From NCBI RefSeq assembly GCF_027921745.1, contig NC_079238.1, positions 930,001 to 994,000 on the forward strand: 64,000 nucleotides of DNA, in the 5' to 3' direction. The notes under the pieces are model-generated. The model did not search any database. It was not told the origin of the DNA and saw nothing but the letters and a program-made list of their open reading frames with translations. Position 1 is the stretch's first letter, and each line of letters begins with the position of its first letter. The translations under genes and the position numbers were made by a program. Positions 54,382-63,929 of this stretch are shown piece by piece. The stretch is from Schizosaccharomyces osmophilus. Lineage: Eukaryota > Ascomycota > Schizosaccharomycetes > Schizosaccharomycetales > Schizosaccharomycetaceae.

Positions 54382-55597
54382 CAAATATACTAAGGTGTTA
54401 CTTATCATTGTGACTCAACACTGCGTAAGCGATGCGAAATATATTGCAGAAACAAACTTCTTCTTTCTTCATTTCTAGCAGTCGGATGGGATTTATCTTG
54501 CTTTTGGAGGAGTTGTAAAATGGATTGACTTGTAGTCGAATCCTATTTCAATTGATATTCGCATTTCATCGTCATTTGGGAGGTTTGCGTATAGAAGAAA
54601 ACTAGAATCGTTCAATTCTTTCGCTCTTGAAACTATACAAGTCCTGTTGGAATGTAAAAAAGAGACAAGTTGGGCTTTACGTACAGCAGTTCCAACGTTT
54701 CCTATGCTGATCTCGAGAAGGGACTTTCTTTATGCACGCCAGAGGCATAAAACAAGCAGCCCAATTCAGGTTCTTTTAAGCAGCAAAGAGAAACGATGTT
54801 TTTCCGTATAATTTCCTTGCAGTATTTATTCAGTTTTCTTTCGAGTGGTCTTGGAAAGTTATTCAGCGGTACTGGAAAAGGGGTAGAATTATTAGTTTAT
54901 AGAGTTGGTTTACTTATTGCGATTGGAATTTAAAATTATTTTTGATGTATGGTATTGCTTCCTTTTTATCCTTTATCCTTCTTAGTTTAATAGCTGTGAG
55001 CTCACCTGAAAACACGTATTAATGGCATACTTCCGAGCTATCAGCAAAACGACAATGCATTGGATCTTGCACCGCCTACTACGAACGAAGGAATAGAGAC
55101 GCAAGCAATAATACTAGTCAAACTTGGTTCCGCTCATTTGTCTTCTGTTCTCTAGTTTGTTTGGACTCTTTCGCTAATGCTGATCGCAATCGATATGGAT
55201 TGCTTTAATAAACCATCATTTATATTCCTTTTTTTATCTATTTCAAATCCAGTCGGAAATAGCTTGAAACTAAGAAACAACTTTGTATTAATATGAATTG
55301 ATGACTGCAATCGAAAGGCATGCGTTTTAATTTCTCATTTTTAAGGCATTGAGTTGGTATGACCGCGGAAATCGAAAACGAAAGACTTACTGCAGCTAAT
55401 CTATTAGTTATTATAAATATTGTTGCTGAAATGTTTACCAAAAAATTGTAATTTCATTACATTCACATTAGGTCCCTTTTTTTTGCTTCCTGTTACTTGT
55501 CGAGGAACGTCTCACAAAAAGGGAAATGAGAAAAGCATTTCCAAGCATGAATTTACGTTCAACATATCAAAAAATAAATAAAGAGAAAAAAAATGAA

Positions 55598-55728
55598 AAG
55601 CCTACAGCACCCTGGATTCCCATGTTGTCTCCAATCGTAGTACTAACGAGGCGAGGCCCTCAGACGTTTTCACTTAACTGCAGTGATCGGACGGGAACTG
55701 GTGTTTTCACCTAGGTGTGGCCGTAGAC
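55598..55728 (-). rRNA. 5S rRNA-like copy with two small insertions
   Basis: The minus strand begins GTCTACGGCCACACCTAGG and ends GCTGTAGGCTT, matching fission yeast 5S rRNA over its length. It is 131 nt instead of about 120. Compared with the copy at 60158-60277 it has a 6-nt insertion after CAGTTAAG and a tandem duplication of CCTCG. Both lie in the middle of the gene, in or beside the internal promoter, so this copy may be a pseudogene. A T-rich tract follows the 3' end. Its 5' flank resembles that of the second copy. Confidence 0.85.
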
Positions 55729-55965
55729 ATTGATTCGCTTTGTAAAAGCAATAAGAGCAATTCGTCTTGTTGTAGTTGATGGTCTTTAGCGTTGTGTGTT
55801 GGCCTGATGTCCTTTAAAATCCAATTCTACTCAGCTCTACCTTTGGTTATTTTTCAGGGCTGAATGAAAAATGCTTTGTTCAATTACAAAATTGATAAAG
55901 TGCAACACTTGGGATGAAAACAAACTGTTTTTCCCTTCTCTATTGATTCACGTTGTGCTAGGCCA
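55729..55965. repeat. Duplicated 5S upstream flank, copy 1
   Basis: Shares patches in the same order with 60278-60470: a 'GATCCAATTC..CTCAG'-like block, an 'AATGCTTT' block, and TCTATTGATTCAC followed by TTGTG. The similarity fades beyond about 240 bp. It marks an old duplication that carried the 5S gene with its flank. Confidence 0.6.
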
Positions 55966-57965: not shown

Positions 57966-58832
57966 TCAACGAAACCCAGATAAAAGAAACTCGTTATCTC
58001 CCAAGGACTCTAATCCGACGGCATTACGAAGACGCTCCTTTAACTTTATCGTCTCATTTGGCCCATACTGAATTCCATAGCCGTCAAGATAACGAGTACA
58101 TTGATCTTTTGTCAAGTTCTCGATATCCTCAATTGAATGAATCTGGGGCAGATCAAAGTCTGGTTCTTGGCCATTTACAAATGGAACGACATCAATAGAC
58201 TTCCCCAAGGATCTCAACTGTATGTTGTGCAATCTATAGTATCGATACTCCTGCTTGCTCAGTTTCTGATCGATACTACGTAGGCTTTCTTCTATTACGT
58301 CCGACCGTTGATTTTGCCGGACTTCCAGGGCTTCCAGTCGTTGTATTTGACGGGTTTCCAGGGCTTCCAGTCGTTGAATTTGACGGGTTTCCAGGGCTTC
58401 CAGTCGTTGAATTTGACGGGTTTCCAGGGATACCATCTCCCTTTTAAGAGCAAGAAATCCGACATTAGGATCATTAAAAAAGTTAATAAACCATTGTGGA
58501 GGTTGACTATTATTAGACTCCTCTAAACTTTTGTAATGATTCAGACGTCTCTCAACTAGGTTTATCTGTTCAAGCGCGCGTAAATTACTATAAAGATAAT
58601 CCTTTTCAAAATTCATTTCCCTGGTTCGTAAAGTAATTCGTTCGAAACCTTGTTCTAACTCATGCCTTTGAAATAGATAGCTTTTTTCATTGACTGCACC
58701 TCTTAAGTCAATTAAATAGCGACTTAACTCTGTAATGTTTTCCTGTCTTGGAGGAGGAATACCTAATTCATTCGTATATAAATTCTCGTTGTTGGTTGAC
58801 AAATCTTCTTGTAAGTGTGAATCCATATTCAT
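57966..58832 (-). CDS. Schizosaccharomyces-specific Mug135-like protein, probable wag (wtf-associated) gene
   Basis: Single exon, 288 aa. The N-terminal 120 residues are helical and charged. A coiled coil follows with three full 11-residue repeats ('LETRQIQRLEA') plus degenerate neighbours, encoded by 33-bp tandem repeats. The C-terminal 75 residues ('SIDVVPFVNGQEPDFDLP', 'SIEDIENLTKDQCTRYLDGY', 'NETIKLKERLRNAVG') resemble, as I remember it, the C-terminal domain of S. pombe Mug135 (DUF1773). Reports on the S. octosporus group describe genes of this kind lying next to wtf drivers and 5S genes under the name wag; that link is from memory. No membrane segment or signal peptide. Function unknown; the position beside a 5S gene and two wtf-type genes supports the call. 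Confidence 0.65.
   Translation of the reverse strand: MNMDSHLQEDLSTNNENLYTNELGIPPPRQENITELSRYLIDLRGAVNEKSYLFQRHELEQGFERITLRTREMNFEKDYLYSNLRALEQINLVERRLNHYKSLEESNNSQPPQWFINFFNDPNVGFLALKREMVSLETRQIQRLEALETRQIQRLEALETRQIQRLEALEVRQNQRSDVIEESLRSIDQKLSKQEYRYYRLHNIQLRSLGKSIDVVPFVNGQEPDFDLPQIHSIEDIENLTKDQCTRYLDGYGIQYGPNETIKLKERLRNAVGLESLGDNEFLLSGFR
58322..58429 (-). repeat. 33-bp tandem repeats in the wag-like gene
   Basis: Three full 33-bp units (58322-58354, 58355-58387, 58388-58420) and a partial one. They differ by only one to two bases, and each encodes an 11-residue coiled-coil step. Near identity suggests recent expansion. Confidence 0.92.
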
Positions 58833-60157
58833 TTTCTTTCATAAAATCAAGTAAAAGATCAATTCAATAATTAACTTTATATTGTTATTGCAATGGTTGT
58901 GGTTGTGGTTGTGGTTGTGGTGATGGAAGCAGTTTAAAGATACTAATTAACGAAGCGATAGCTATATACTCGAGGTAGTTCGATCAGTACAATTATGTAC
59001 GATTGTATAATATAGCCAAAAAAGTTTACTCAAGTTTAACAATGGCTTGCTTTTTCACAAAATCTAGAAAAATTCACAGAAATATTACTGTTTAGTTGAC
59101 TTTAATGAAAGATATCTCAATTCACCGAAAACAAAGTATACCTAGTAATCACTCAACAAAAACATTCAACATAAGAACTCGTGTCATCATCAGTCAAATT
59201 TGTTTACAGTCTTTTAATTTATAAGTTTTTAGAAAGCTAATGGTATAAACTTTAGGTTGAAAAGGTTTCAGCGGTCCATTTGTTCTGTCTTTTCATAATG
59301 TAAACAGAAAAATTTTGGGGAATAACAAAAAATCCATGTTGCTTCCTAAGCAGAACCAGATAAAAGTAATATTGAATTTGAAGTAGAACTTGAACAATGT
59401 AAAACCCAAGAAAAGGCAAAGTTTGTTGTTGCACAATTATAGACAAGGAAATTGCTGTTTCATATGAGGATGCCTATACTGCTTTGGTGCCATTCTATGC
59501 TTCACTTGTGTTCGTCAAAAACTAATCGATATCATGCTTTCTCTTTCTTTTTCTTAAAATGGAAAGTTAATTACAAAACTGAGAACCTTGCAAGATGGTT
59601 GGTGTAAACGAAACGTAATTGTTGCTGAGAATCGATGTCAATAAACAAATGCTCTCTTGTGTAAAAGCTTGGCGAAAACTTTTTTTATTCAAATAAAACA
59701 AGAATGAGATTCAAGTAGAGCCAATAAAAAAGAGGAAATTATCTTTGAAGTCACTACTTTTATATCAATCTACCGGCGGCGGTTTTGCATGGAAATATTA
59801 AATTTGTAACCAAAACTTTTATTATTGCAACATTCGCGCGTACTCTGTTACAACAGAAATCTCACAGAATATGGGAATGTTTACCTAGCGAAAACAAACA
59901 ACGAGGACAAATCTAAAATTGTCTAATTAGTCGAGCATTTTTAATACGATGTGAGAATAGTAAGAAAGTGAGCTGTATTTTTTTTTTTTTTTTTTTTTTT
60001 TTTCAATGTTTGTATGCATTTATAGCATTTTGAACCCATGGAAGAAAAGTAAAAGTCGGATTCAAGTGACTCTACTATAGTATCGATTTAAAGAAGGGTC
60101 TTTGCTTGTATAGACCAACAAAACCGGATTGTTTAAAAAAGGAAACCAAAAAGTGAA
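58833..60157. other. 1.3-kb region between the wag-like gene and the 5S gene
   Basis: AT-rich, no supported gene. Holds a GGTTGT microsatellite and a T run of about 25 at 59978-60003. Confidence 0.5.
58895..58920 (+). repeat. (GGTTGT)4 microsatellite
   Basis: Four perfect hexamer units plus GG, about 65 bp upstream of the wag-like start codon. Confidence 0.9.
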
Positions 60158-60277
60158 AAGCCTACAGCATCCCGGATTCCCATGTTGTCTCCAACCATAG
60201 TACTAACGAGACCCTCAGACGCTTAACTGCAGTGATCGGACGGGAACTGGTGTTTTCGCCTAGGTGTGGCCGTAGAC
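60158..60277 (-). rRNA. 5S rRNA gene
   Basis: 120 nt from GTCTACGGCCACACCTAGG to GCTGTAGGCTT on the minus strand, with the conserved internal block CGATCACTGCAGTTAAGCG. It matches remembered S. pombe 5S rRNA at nearly every position; the visible changes are ACACC for ATACC, GGGTCTCG for GGGCCTCG, and GGGATGC for GGGGTGC. The 3' end runs into CACTTTTTGG, a Pol III terminator. It is a dispersed single copy, as in fission yeasts generally, and lies about 660 bp from the 3' end of the wtf gene. Confidence 0.93.
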
Positions 60278-60470
60278 GTTTGTTGTGGTCTGTAAAAAAA
60301 TTTAATCCAATATTGATCCAGTCTTTTTGGCTTGATGAACTACAAGATCCAATTCGGCTCAGTTTTATCTGGTAAATTATCACGGTTGAACGGAGAATGC
60401 TTTCATATTGTAAGAATAAGATTTGAAAACACACAGTTTTCTCTTTTCTATTGATTCACATTGTGGTCGC
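60278..60470. repeat. Duplicated 5S upstream flank, copy 2
   Basis: Partner of 55729-55965; shares GATCCAATTC, CTCAG, AATGCTTT and TCTATTGATTCAC blocks in the same order. Confidence 0.6.
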
Positions 60471-60937
60471 AGGAGCATCAAATTGAGTGTATGAGTTTAT
60501 GGGTTGAAAATGTTACTTAATATAAATTGGGTTCTACTTGAAATTTTTCATGGTCCGTCGACTTGACTCCCAAAGTAAACGGTAATTCAATGTTTTAAAC
60601 TATATCAATCGATTCTTCCAATCTGAAGATTTATACTTTCTATGCTGTGAACGAATTTTACCTCTGGCGGTAATCACTTTCGTTCTTACAATTAATGAAA
60701 GACACGACACAGTGTTGAGTAAAAAACTAGTTAATTACGATGGTATTTTCCTCAGAATAATTAAAAATCATTAAAAAGGGTGTCTACTCATGAAGAAAAT
60801 GAACGATGCCGTGAAACGAATAAGAAGATTCATGAGAGAGAAATGAGAAAAGCAATCAAAGTCTGCTGGACTGCAATTGACATCGATGTTTCCAAAGAAG
60901 GAGCGAATGTAAAGAACGAAAGCGGCTTCGGTAGAAC
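60471..60937. other. 3' region of the wtf gene
   Basis: AT-rich, with no further gene supported. A 63-codon plus-strand frame at 60780-60971 is the antisense shadow of the last wtf exon. Confidence 0.45.
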
Positions 60938-62122
60938 TCAAACTTCAGCCCTTTGCTCAGCAAGAGGTTGAAGTTCGATTTCTTCGTTACGAGGTGCTTC
61001 ATCTCCTCGATTTGTTCCTTTTGAATTGGTTAATAACGCCTTGTGATAGGAAGCATTTACCAAGTGTACATACCGAACATATGAACCACAGCATTTCCCA
61101 AGCCGTGTCCCAAGCCATTTATTCCGTTTCCTAAGCCATTTATGCCGTTTCCTAAGCCATTTATGCCGTTTCCTAAGCCACTCATGCCGTTTCCCATATC
61201 GACGACTACTAATCTAAGTCGTTCACGCGCATTTGCATTCACTATAACTGTTAGAACATTTCGCGGGTGTATGACATACTCGTCAAATAAAGAAACAAGA
61301 CAAAGTTAACAAAACAAACAGCATAGAAAAAATTGTTGTTTATCTTTTCAAATCCTGTGAACTTCTTTGCAGCATAATACGCGGTGAAACCGAGGACATC
61401 GAGAAAACACACACATAATACTGAGATACACATAGCTGACAATACGTTTTTGGTTAATCTTCCAGTTTGCCTGTACCATTCCGGATATGTTACAAGAATC
61501 GCTAAAAATAAGTCAGTTGTTCGAAGACAAGAAATTGTTGACTTACTGAATAGGAAAATAAAAATGGATCCAATAGAACCGCCAGCAAGCCCGTAAAAAA
61601 CATTCGTATACGGAGAAACCTTGTAACCAAAAACTATGGCTAGAAAAACAGTATTATATAAAATAGCTATAATAGTCATTATGCCTACGAAAAAGTTTTT
61701 CCACCACTCTTTATTCGTTAAAGGGTCCGACCTGATGTTATTAACAGTATCTTGGGCGGAATTTTGAGCGGATCCATCAGCCATTTCTAGATCAACATTT
61801 TTTTTTGAGACTAATGGATGTATTAGTAACTGTTTTTTCGTGGTTTACGAAAGGATAGAGGTGTTTGTCGCGCTTGCTGACAGTTATCGACCAGGTGATT
61901 GAATTCAAACCCAACAATCAAATAAACAAGCATGATTCTTCCATCATGAGCCGTTCAAACAAGAACACAAAGAATAAACCTTTCCGTTCTATTTCAACTA
62001 ATCTTACCTGAATACGGAGGAGGCGTACCATCTGAAGGAGACGACCGACTATCTGCCTTTTCATCATTGAGCGTTTTGGAAGAGTCATCAGAATCTGAAA
62101 TAGGAGAGTACTTGTTTTTCAT
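60938..62122 (-). CDS. wtf: wtf-family meiotic driver gene (poison/antidote architecture), 5 exons, looks whole
   Basis: Exons 62122-62008, 61786-61547, 61501-61280, 61241-61074 and 61017-60938 join in frame to 274 aa. Donors are GTAAGA, GTAAGT, GTATGT and GTATGT; CTGAC or CTAAC precedes the AG in introns 2 and 3. Exon 1 encodes 'MKNKYSPISDSDDSSKTLND' and ends in 'DGTPPPYS', the basic-acidic start and PPxY motif typical of wtf antidotes. A second ATG sits two bases into exon 2 ('MADGSAQNSAQD'), where the family's poison form starts; that shorter form would be 235 aa. Four to five hydrophobic segments follow, then 7-residue 'NGINGLG' repeats and a hydrophilic tail. In fission yeasts wtf genes kill spores that do not inherit them, by alternative transcripts. 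The family call is strong; driving activity is inferred. Confidence 0.88.
61112..61195 (-). repeat. 21-bp tandem repeats in wtf exon 4
   Basis: Four 21-bp units (61112-61132, 61133-61153, 61154-61174, 61175-61195), nearly identical, each encoding a 7-residue Gly/Asn step. Variable 21-bp C-terminal repeats are a known wtf feature in S. pombe. Confidence 0.92.
61842..61848 (-). promoter_or_regulatory. Partial FLEX core in wtf intron 1
   Basis: GTAAACC on the coding strand, about 55 bp before exon 2. wtf genes carry a Mei4 FLEX motif in intron 1 that drives the poison transcript. Here only the GTAAAC core is kept. Confidence 0.35.
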
Positions 62123-63043
62123 ATTTACAATGGCAAGTAGAGCTCAAAATAGCGCCGATATTTACACTCCAAATGAAATCAACTAGAATCGCCAAGAAAA
62201 GTCCGTAGGAACTGGTTCCGCTCTTCACAGATCTGTCAGAAAAAGGAATTGGACCTTGCTTAAAAAGCAAACTAATCTTACAACACGAGTGTTCCCTTAA
62301 AACCAAAGATGCGAGTTTGAAAAAATCTTGGTAATGGCTTTTCGCATGTCTCAATTCATAAAAGCAGCGACATTATGTCACTGACTGGTCACAGTCCTCG
62401 TTACGATTATTCAACGTTGGTTTTTCATTGCGATTTTTCGTAATAGTATAATCCAAAAGAGTCGTCGTTTATTACAAAAAGTAAACAAAGGAACATTTGG
62501 CAAAACAACCATGCTGTTTGCTTAAATTATAAAAACAGGATTAGAAATGCATATCTTTGTATTGGAAGTTTCCGTGATTTTGGCTTAATGAATTCCAGGG
62601 AAAAGGATTGAACACTCTAGATTTTCGTAGCCTTACTTTCAGCATTCGTAAATCCATCGGAAGCCTGGAAAAGCAACGTTCAAACTATCACGAACGATGT
62701 TTGTAGTGACAAGTACATCTTTCTTTTATTTAATTTATTTTGATTACACGATAGAAACAAACAAAAGCGATTTCGGACAGTTCATTCATTGTAAATATAT
62801 ATAGAATAGCGTACGCTTACTAGCTATCGGTATGTGTGTCAGAGAGGGTGGATGACAGCTTCACCTCTGCAAAACTCTAGCCATTGCCATTGTGGACTCG
62901 ATTCATGTAGTTTGGAGTTGTTACAAAGTAGATTTATATTAAGCTTATTAGTCGGATCAGATGTGTGCTACTGTTCTGAAAGTTCTGACATGAATTTGGA
63001 TGTTTACTGCCTATTTGAGTAGGTTTTGAAGGAATTTCAGAAA
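62123..63043. other. Shared head-to-head promoter region of the two wtf-type genes
   Basis: A spacer of 921 bp with a FLEX-like GTAAACAAAG at 62481-62490 (+) and TGTTTAC at 63001-63007, i.e. GTAAACA on the minus strand. A minus-strand frame at 62088-62354 with a hydrophobic stretch may be an old wtf fragment. Confidence 0.5.
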
Positions 63044-63929
63044 ATGATTGAAAAAAACAAATACAAATACAAATACAAAAAGCTAAAAGATGCTGATTCA
63101 GCTGACGTTCCTCGCTTGGGCACTCTTGCAACGTTTGACGGTGAACTGCCACGGTACAATGAAATCTTTAATTCTCATCTAGACGACTTGGAAAAAGGTC
63201 ATGCACCTCCGTACTCAGAAAACAGACATCAAGAAGCGTCTACCAACATGGCACAAGGAAGCGGATTCTTTATTCTTTTACGAAATGTCTTGACGGCATT
63301 ATTGTGGTTGATTTTCTGGCCGGCAGAAATTGCGAGAATTCCTGAAGCACAACGAAGACAAGAGAATGAAGCTCTTCGGCTTGGTTGGTGCTTTATTGGT
63401 TCAATCGTATTGGACTTTTTCTTTTCTTACTTTTTCCTTGTCCCCTTTATAAAGGAACCGATGAAAGAATCTGTATGGACATGGTTTCAAGCTACTGTGG
63501 CAGCTGTTCTTGTCGTCATGACTTTCTATATGTTCTTATTTGTTTTTTCACGTAAGTGGAATGGTGGGATTTTAATTTGATATGTTTACTAATGGGGTAC
63601 TTTTAGTGTTGGTGGATTCAATCGTTATATTGATTCCTCTAGTTTTTTCTGGGATTTCCTCGTTTTTCTTTGGGATTTTTTCTGGAATTTTTTCTGTGAT
63701 TACTAGTGCTCTAGGCTTCAGGATGTCATCGGATAGAAACGACTTGACGGATGATAATAGTATCCCATTAAACAGCTTGCCACCAGAGCCTGAAAACCAG
63801 TTCAACGATCGTAGTGATGATACTTTTAAACAACCGTTCTCTGAACATACCTCTGAACATACTGAGCAATCTCCAGGGTTACGCCAGGAACCGGGTCAGT
63901 CTAGGGATGTTGAAAGCGGTGGGAATTGA
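63044..63929 (+). CDS. wtf-like multi-span membrane protein, 2 exons
   Basis: Exons 63044-63551 and 63607-63929 join to 276 aa. The 55-nt intron has a GTAAGT donor and ACTAAT before TTTTAG. The start 'MIEKNKYKYKYKKLKDADSA' parallels the 'MKNKY' start of the neighbouring wtf gene. Both 'LPRYNE' and 'APPYSE' (L/PPxY-type, the latter after 'LEKG') lie in the cytosolic N-terminal 70 residues, as in wtf antidotes. Four hydrophobic segments follow (about 73-95, 115-138, 145-170, 172-205), with a Gly-Ile-Phe-Ser repeat ('FFFGIFSGIFSVI') in the last. The tail is acidic and Ser/Pro-rich. No intron separates the PPxY region from the first membrane span, so the usual exon 1 / exon 2 layout is absent. 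It may be an antidote-type or diverged member. It is divergent from the wtf gene at 60938-62122. Confidence 0.65.

What the first reader, a model, noticed from the sequence alone, without database searches (positions are those of the whole stretch)
60938..62122. A complete wtf-type spore-killer (meiotic driver) gene
Five exons splice in frame with good donor sites and CTAAC/CTGAC branch sites in introns 2 and 3. The product has every hallmark of the wtf family: an MKNKY start, PPPY motif, several membrane spans, C-terminal 7-residue repeats, and a second ATG two bases inside exon 2 where the poison form would begin. It looks whole, so it is a candidate active selfish gene. It also lies outside S. 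pombe, where the family was first found.
Basis: partly seen in the sequence, partly recalled or inferred. Interest (0 to 1): 0.92.

Follow-up and report, generated by a model that had tools for sequence, protein, structure and literature searches.

The report
Known-type fission yeast spore-killer gene
This is an intact-looking gene of a selfish family already described in several fission yeasts, which can make both a poison and its antidote so that spores lacking the gene die; whether this copy really kills is not known from sequence alone.

Summary
On the minus strand, 62122-60938, five exons splice in frame to a 274-aa multi-span membrane protein with an MKNKY start, PPPY in exon 1, an ATG two bases into exon 2, and a 7-residue xGNGxxG array in exon 4. 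The array begins at base 505 of the poison frame, the position published for the proven driver S. octosporus wtf25. A 5S rRNA gene lies in tandem downstream; a divergent membrane-protein gene, probably "wag", lies upstream. The window is a non-pombe fission yeast. The family there is not new: De Carvalho et al. 2022 (PMC9562144) listed 48, 31 and 2 intact genes in three such species and showed drive in one. Caveats: no Pfam wtf match; no relative fetched; intron 1 holds only a two-mismatch FLEX site, no better than chance, so poison expression is uncertain; intron 1 has a second in-frame acceptor. An antidote-like look of the wag tail is weak. Verdict: a member of a known kind, perhaps already catalogued.

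The parts
62008..62122 (-). exon 1 (antidote-only tail: MKNKY start, PPPY)
   Evidence: in-frame model, GTAAGA donor
61787..62007 (-). intron 1; presumed place of the poison promoter; alternative in-frame acceptor gives exon 2 from 61810
   Evidence: best FLEX-like site 61922-61932 with 2 mismatches
61547..61786 (-). exon 2; poison start ATG at 61784-61782; first hydrophobic regions
61280..61501 (-). exon 3; hydrophobic regions
61074..61241 (-). exon 4; contains the 21-bp heptad array
61102..61194 (-). 21-bp tandem repeat, 4.4 copies (MGNGMSG, 3 x LGNGING, LGHGLGN)
60938..61017 (-). exon 5 and stop
60159..60277 (-). 5S rRNA gene in tandem downstream of the wtf gene
   Evidence: Rfam RF00001, 103.8 bits
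63044..63929 (+). divergent upstream two-exon membrane-protein gene (276 aa), probable wag gene; exons 63044-63551 and 63607-63929
   Evidence: called wag by position and orientation only

Best explanation
An intact wtf gene of a non-pombe Schizosaccharomyces. Inferred working by homology: a long transcript from upstream of exon 1 makes the antidote (274 aa), whose PPPY motif would bind Rsp5/NEDD4-type ubiquitin ligases and route it to the endosome and vacuole; a short transcript from within intron 1 would make the poison (235 aa, exons 2-5), a membrane protein that kills spores unless they also hold the antidote. The heptad array would help match poison to its own antidote. Shown here: gene structure, motifs, repeat array, genomic context. 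Inferred: both transcripts, toxicity, rescue and drive. The confidence given is for the gene being an intact wtf gene; that it makes enough poison to drive I put at about even.
For: Five-exon frame and exon-2 ATG; PPPY at 34-37; six lysines in the first 68 residues, a residue type ubiquitinated in the S. pombe Cw9a tail (PMC10721834); heptads of the form xGNGxxG, array start at poison base 505, as published for wtf25 (bases 505-534); tandem 5S gene and divergent neighbour, the layout described in PMC9562144. Fission yeast: the best solved relative of the window's NatC subunit is 7l1k chain B (E 5.4e-163; next chain 5e-14; that 7l1k is S. pombe is recalled), with many differences, so not S. pombe itself.
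Against: No Pfam wtf match at E up to 10; no significant PDB match (best E 0.35); no direct alignment with any known Wtf protein was possible. No FLEX site better than 2 mismatches in intron 1, and 20% of the window's 221-nt stretches have one as good or better. No transcripts seen. S. osmophilus wtf19, an intact gene, had a non-toxic poison product in budding yeast, so intact does not mean active.
Confidence: 0.93

Rival explanations
1. Within the wtf family (so not exclusive with the best explanation): a gene that makes only or mainly antidote. The poison reading frame is intact but the short transcript is absent or weak, so it acts as a silent copy or a suppressor of related drivers.
For: No confident FLEX site in intron 1. 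In S. octosporus, 14 of the 28 intact genes without confident FLEX had a detectable short transcript, against 17 of 20 with it, and drive followed poison expression (PMC9562144).
Against: 0 of 31 intact S. osmophilus genes has confident FLEX, yet the paper leaves poison expression there possible, and wtf41 of that species has a toxic poison product when expressed in budding yeast.
Confidence: 0.45
2. A multi-span membrane protein gene unrelated to wtf that resembles it by chance or convergence.
For: No Pfam wtf match and no fetched relatives (these collections hold viruses and prokaryotes).
Against: The joint occurrence of exon plan, exon-2 ATG, PY motif, heptad form and position, tandem 5S gene and divergent neighbour fits the published description of wtf genes.
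Confidence: 0.04

Closest known systems
S. octosporus wtf25 (proven poison-antidote driver, PMC9562144)
   Same: Exon 1-5 antidote and exon 2-5 poison plan; 7-residue GN-containing repeats in exon 4 beginning at base 505 of the poison frame; 5S rRNA association.
   Different: wtf25 has 10 residues in its repeat region and its antidote is 135 nt longer than its poison; here about five heptads and 117 nt (141 nt with the other intron 1 acceptor). wtf25 is flanked by 5S genes on both sides; here a divergent gene lies upstream. wtf25 drives; this gene is untested.
wag-associated wtf genes of S. octosporus, S. osmophilus and S. cryophilus (PMC9562144)
   Same: Divergent neighbour gene upstream and 5S rRNA gene nearby.
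   Different: Sequence relationship not testable here; the neighbour is called wag by position only.
S. pombe wtf4 and other S. pombe drivers
   Same: Alternative starts for poison and antidote, PY motif in exon 1, C-terminal heptads (the wtf4 region reads IGNIGRAFRG, from letters printed in PMC11892871).
   Different: All verified S. pombe drivers have the FLEX site in intron 1; wtf4 has six exons; most S. pombe antidotes have two PY motifs in the antidote-only part; the genes lie by LTRs rather than 5S genes.

Membership tests
wtf (non-pombe Schizosaccharomyces) | five-exon gene with in-frame GT-AG introns | tested here: met
   junctions not confirmed by RNA
wtf (non-pombe Schizosaccharomyces) | in-frame ATG near the start of exon 2 | tested here: met
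   ATG 2 nt into exon 2 (26 nt with the other acceptor)
wtf (non-pombe Schizosaccharomyces) | single PY motif in the antidote's N-terminal tail | tested here: met
   PPPY 34-37; feature stated in PMC10721834
wtf (non-pombe Schizosaccharomyces) | several transmembrane spans | tested here: met
   four hydrophobic regions, Kyte-Doolittle only, on the 276-aa version
wtf (non-pombe Schizosaccharomyces) | 7-residue repeats in exon 4 (many, not all members) | tested here: met
   published form and place
wtf (non-pombe Schizosaccharomyces) | association with a dispersed 5S rRNA gene (72 of 83, 33 of 42, 2 of 5 genes in the three species) | tested here: met
   60159-60277; figures
wtf (non-pombe Schizosaccharomyces) | sequence match to a Wtf profile | tested here: inconclusive
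   no Pfam wtf match at E up to 10; no positive control for that model, and no non-pombe Wtf sequence was at hand
wtf driver | confident FLEX site in intron 1 (all verified S. pombe drivers; 20 of 48 intact S. octosporus, 1 of 2 S. cryophilus, 0 of 31 S. osmophilus genes) | tested here: not met
   best site 2 mismatches; not required outside S. pombe
wtf driver | two transcripts, toxicity, rescue and biased transmission | not testable with these tools
   needs RNA and crosses

The most novel reading that the evidence does not exclude
The upstream divergent gene (probable wag, 63044-63929) is a distant relative or functional partner of wtf: its product also begins with a KNKY-like stretch, carries a PY motif (LPRY) at residues 35-38, where the wtf product has PPPY at 34-37, and is a multi-span membrane protein. 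It could be an antidote-only or trafficking helper that travels with the driver, which would give the uncharacterised wag family a role.
Probability: 0.15. Interest if true: 0.65.

Novelty: new member of a known kind. Interest (0 to 1): 0.3.

Why it matters
It adds, or re-finds, one intact-looking wtf gene outside S. pombe in the 5S/wag setting, without a good FLEX site; such genes are the ones for which poison expression is unsettled. The likeness of the neighbouring wag tail to antidote tails is a small testable lead on a family of unknown function.

Tried and rejected
Search of the window's own genome: none held. Pfam for the product, PDB sequences (13 chains listed at E up to 10, best 0.35), plasmid records, viral contigs (79 pattern matches, none confirmed) and prokaryote genomes (59 pattern matches, none confirmed): no significant relative, as expected for a fission-yeast gene in collections not made for fungi. 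The neighbour's spliced protein has no Pfam match above a curated cut-off; its best was a viral fusion glycoprotein model at E 0.007, 14.8 bits against a cut-off of 27.

A second, decayed wtf copy near the other 5S gene (55599-55728): tblastn of the product over the window found nothing beyond the gene itself with E under 2. The two 5S places share the 5S gene (144 bp, 87%) and about 160 bp of 5' flank (67%); other shared pieces were short with E of 0.02 or more.

A firm tie between the wag and wtf proteins: local alignment score 50 is reached by 5 of 1000, 2 of 1000 and 10 of 2000 shuffles. In one search wag ranks first by z-score of 35 compared (z 4.0; next 3.1 and 3.0); those 35 are wag and those of 38 ATG frames of 100 aa or more that are not over 1500 aa and not frames of the wtf and wag genes; some are antisense frames, and long ones were cut at 400 aa. 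The tails alone reach their score in 39 of 1000 shuffles and the membrane parts in 531 of 1000. Without the first 13 residues, which come from an AAATAC repeat, 64 of 2000 shuffles reach the score; the part from residue 70 on gives 267 of 2000. BLASTP gave no meaningful match in the part of its output that I printed. So not claimed.

Species: not settled. Published facts make S. cryophilus less likely (two intact wtf genes, one without a poison start; one of the two has a confident FLEX site, which one is not said in what I read; heptads are reported for S. octosporus and S. osmophilus). S. osmophilus, S. octosporus and S. lindneri remain. Structure prediction was not run, because the spliced protein is not a letter-for-letter translation of the window.

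Full report
What is there. On the minus strand between 62122 and 60938, five exons (62122-62008, 61786-61547, 61501-61280, 61241-61074, 61017-60938) join in frame to 274 residues. Introns are 221, 45, 38 and 56 nt, all GT..AG, with branch-like CTGAC, CTAAC and TTAAC beginning 15, 13 and 16 nt before the ends of introns 2, 3 and 4. A 177-aa open frame spans exons 2 and 3 and the stop-free intron between them; none of 300 dinucleotide shuffles of 60300-62600 gave an ATG frame as long (longest 157). The product starts MKNKY, has PPPY at 34-37, four hydrophobic regions (five Kyte-Doolittle segments, two overlapping, on the 276-aa version) and a C-terminal array MGNGMSG, three LGNGING, LGHGLGN, encoded by a 21-bp tandem repeat.

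Its 274-aa model is the better one for intron 3; my first pass gave 276 aa. For intron 1 it missed a second acceptor, 24 nt upstream and in frame (exon 2 from 61810, 282 aa), which sits 16 nt after the start of the CTAAT site. Either choice keeps the exon-2 ATG. A short out-of-frame ATG (four codons with its stop) lies just before the poison ATG (sequence); whether it matters is unknown.

Context. A 5S rRNA gene lies at 60159-60277 on the same strand, downstream (Rfam). Upstream and divergent lies a two-exon gene, 63044-63929, for a 276-aa membrane protein. De Carvalho et al. 2022 (PMC9562144; [quoted passage not shown] octosporus table legend). The 5S gene expected beyond the wag gene would lie outside the window. 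Neighbouring genes fit a fission yeast: Abp2, a Mug135-like protein, CENP-C, Mcm10, ketol-acid reductoisomerase (Pfam), and a NatC subunit whose best solved relative is 7l1k chain B (that this entry is S. pombe is recalled).

Family membership. The gene has the published features of non-pombe wtf genes: five exons, poison ATG near the start of exon 2, one PY motif in the antidote tail (PMC10721834, passages), heptads in exon 4 of the GNxxxG form, 5S association. The array begins at base 505 of the poison frame, the place given for wtf25 (bases 505-534; PMC11892871, passages). The published wtf25 repeat is printed with 28 letters although called 30 bp; its ends read IGNGA and GIGN. Against: Pfam gave no wtf match at E up to 10, and I could not align the product with any known Wtf protein. 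The most similar S. pombe-S. octosporus wtf pair shares 16% identity, so a Pfam miss is not decisive, but I had no positive control for that model.

Does it drive? Not shown. Intron 1 has no FLEX site better than two mismatches (61922-61932), and 20% of 221-nt stretches of this window have one as good or better. In the paper, 20 of 48 intact S. octosporus genes, 1 of 2 in S. cryophilus and 0 of 31 in S. osmophilus had a confident site; of the 28 S. octosporus genes without one, 14 still had a detectable short transcript. Of seven S. octosporus genes deleted, chosen for poison expression, three were active drivers and two more perhaps weak ones. Of five genes from the three species tested in budding yeast, four had a toxic poison product. 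So the chance that this gene makes poison is roughly even by analogy, which is an inference.

How it would work. By homology with studied members, the antidote's PY motif recruits Rsp5/NEDD4-type ligases, and ubiquitination diverts antidote and bound poison from the trans-Golgi to the endosome (PMC10721834, passages); heptad number and sequence help fit poison to antidote (PMC11892871, passages). All of this is inferred for the present gene.

Novelty. The family outside S. pombe was described in 2022, with 48, 31 and 2 intact genes in S. octosporus, S. osmophilus and S. cryophilus; S. lindneri also has wtf genes. The gene may already be in those lists; I could not open the supplements, and the species is not settled. 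Two searches of the paper library, which lacks most subscription papers, listed only PMC9562144 as a fission-yeast paper naming wag genes; it calls the family uncharacterised. I also saw passages of PMC10085805 and PMC11497594. The neighbour's tail looks somewhat like an antidote tail, but the signal weakens to 64 of 2000 shuffles when a simple repeat is left out, so it is a lead only.

Noticed in passing
63044-63929 (+): Two-exon gene (276 aa, multi-span membrane protein, LPRY motif at 35-38, KNKY-like start from an AAATAC repeat), divergent from the wtf gene; probable wag gene with a weak antidote-like tail.
   Followed up: partly
55588-55957 and 60148-60465: Two 5S rRNA genes on the minus strand (144 bp at 87%) also share about 160 bp of 5' flank at 67%; the first has no detectable wtf gene beside it.
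   Followed up: partly
57966-58832 (-): Gene with a Mug135-like C-terminal domain (Pfam PF08593) holding a 33-bp tandem repeat (58306-58429).
   Followed up: no
61787-61810 (-): Between the two possible intron 1 acceptors lies a short out-of-frame ATG with its stop two bases before the poison ATG, a possible upstream reading frame on the poison transcript.
   Followed up: no
60933-60983: Imperfect palindrome (51 bp, 78% self-complementary) across the end of exon 5 and the stop codon.
   Followed up: no
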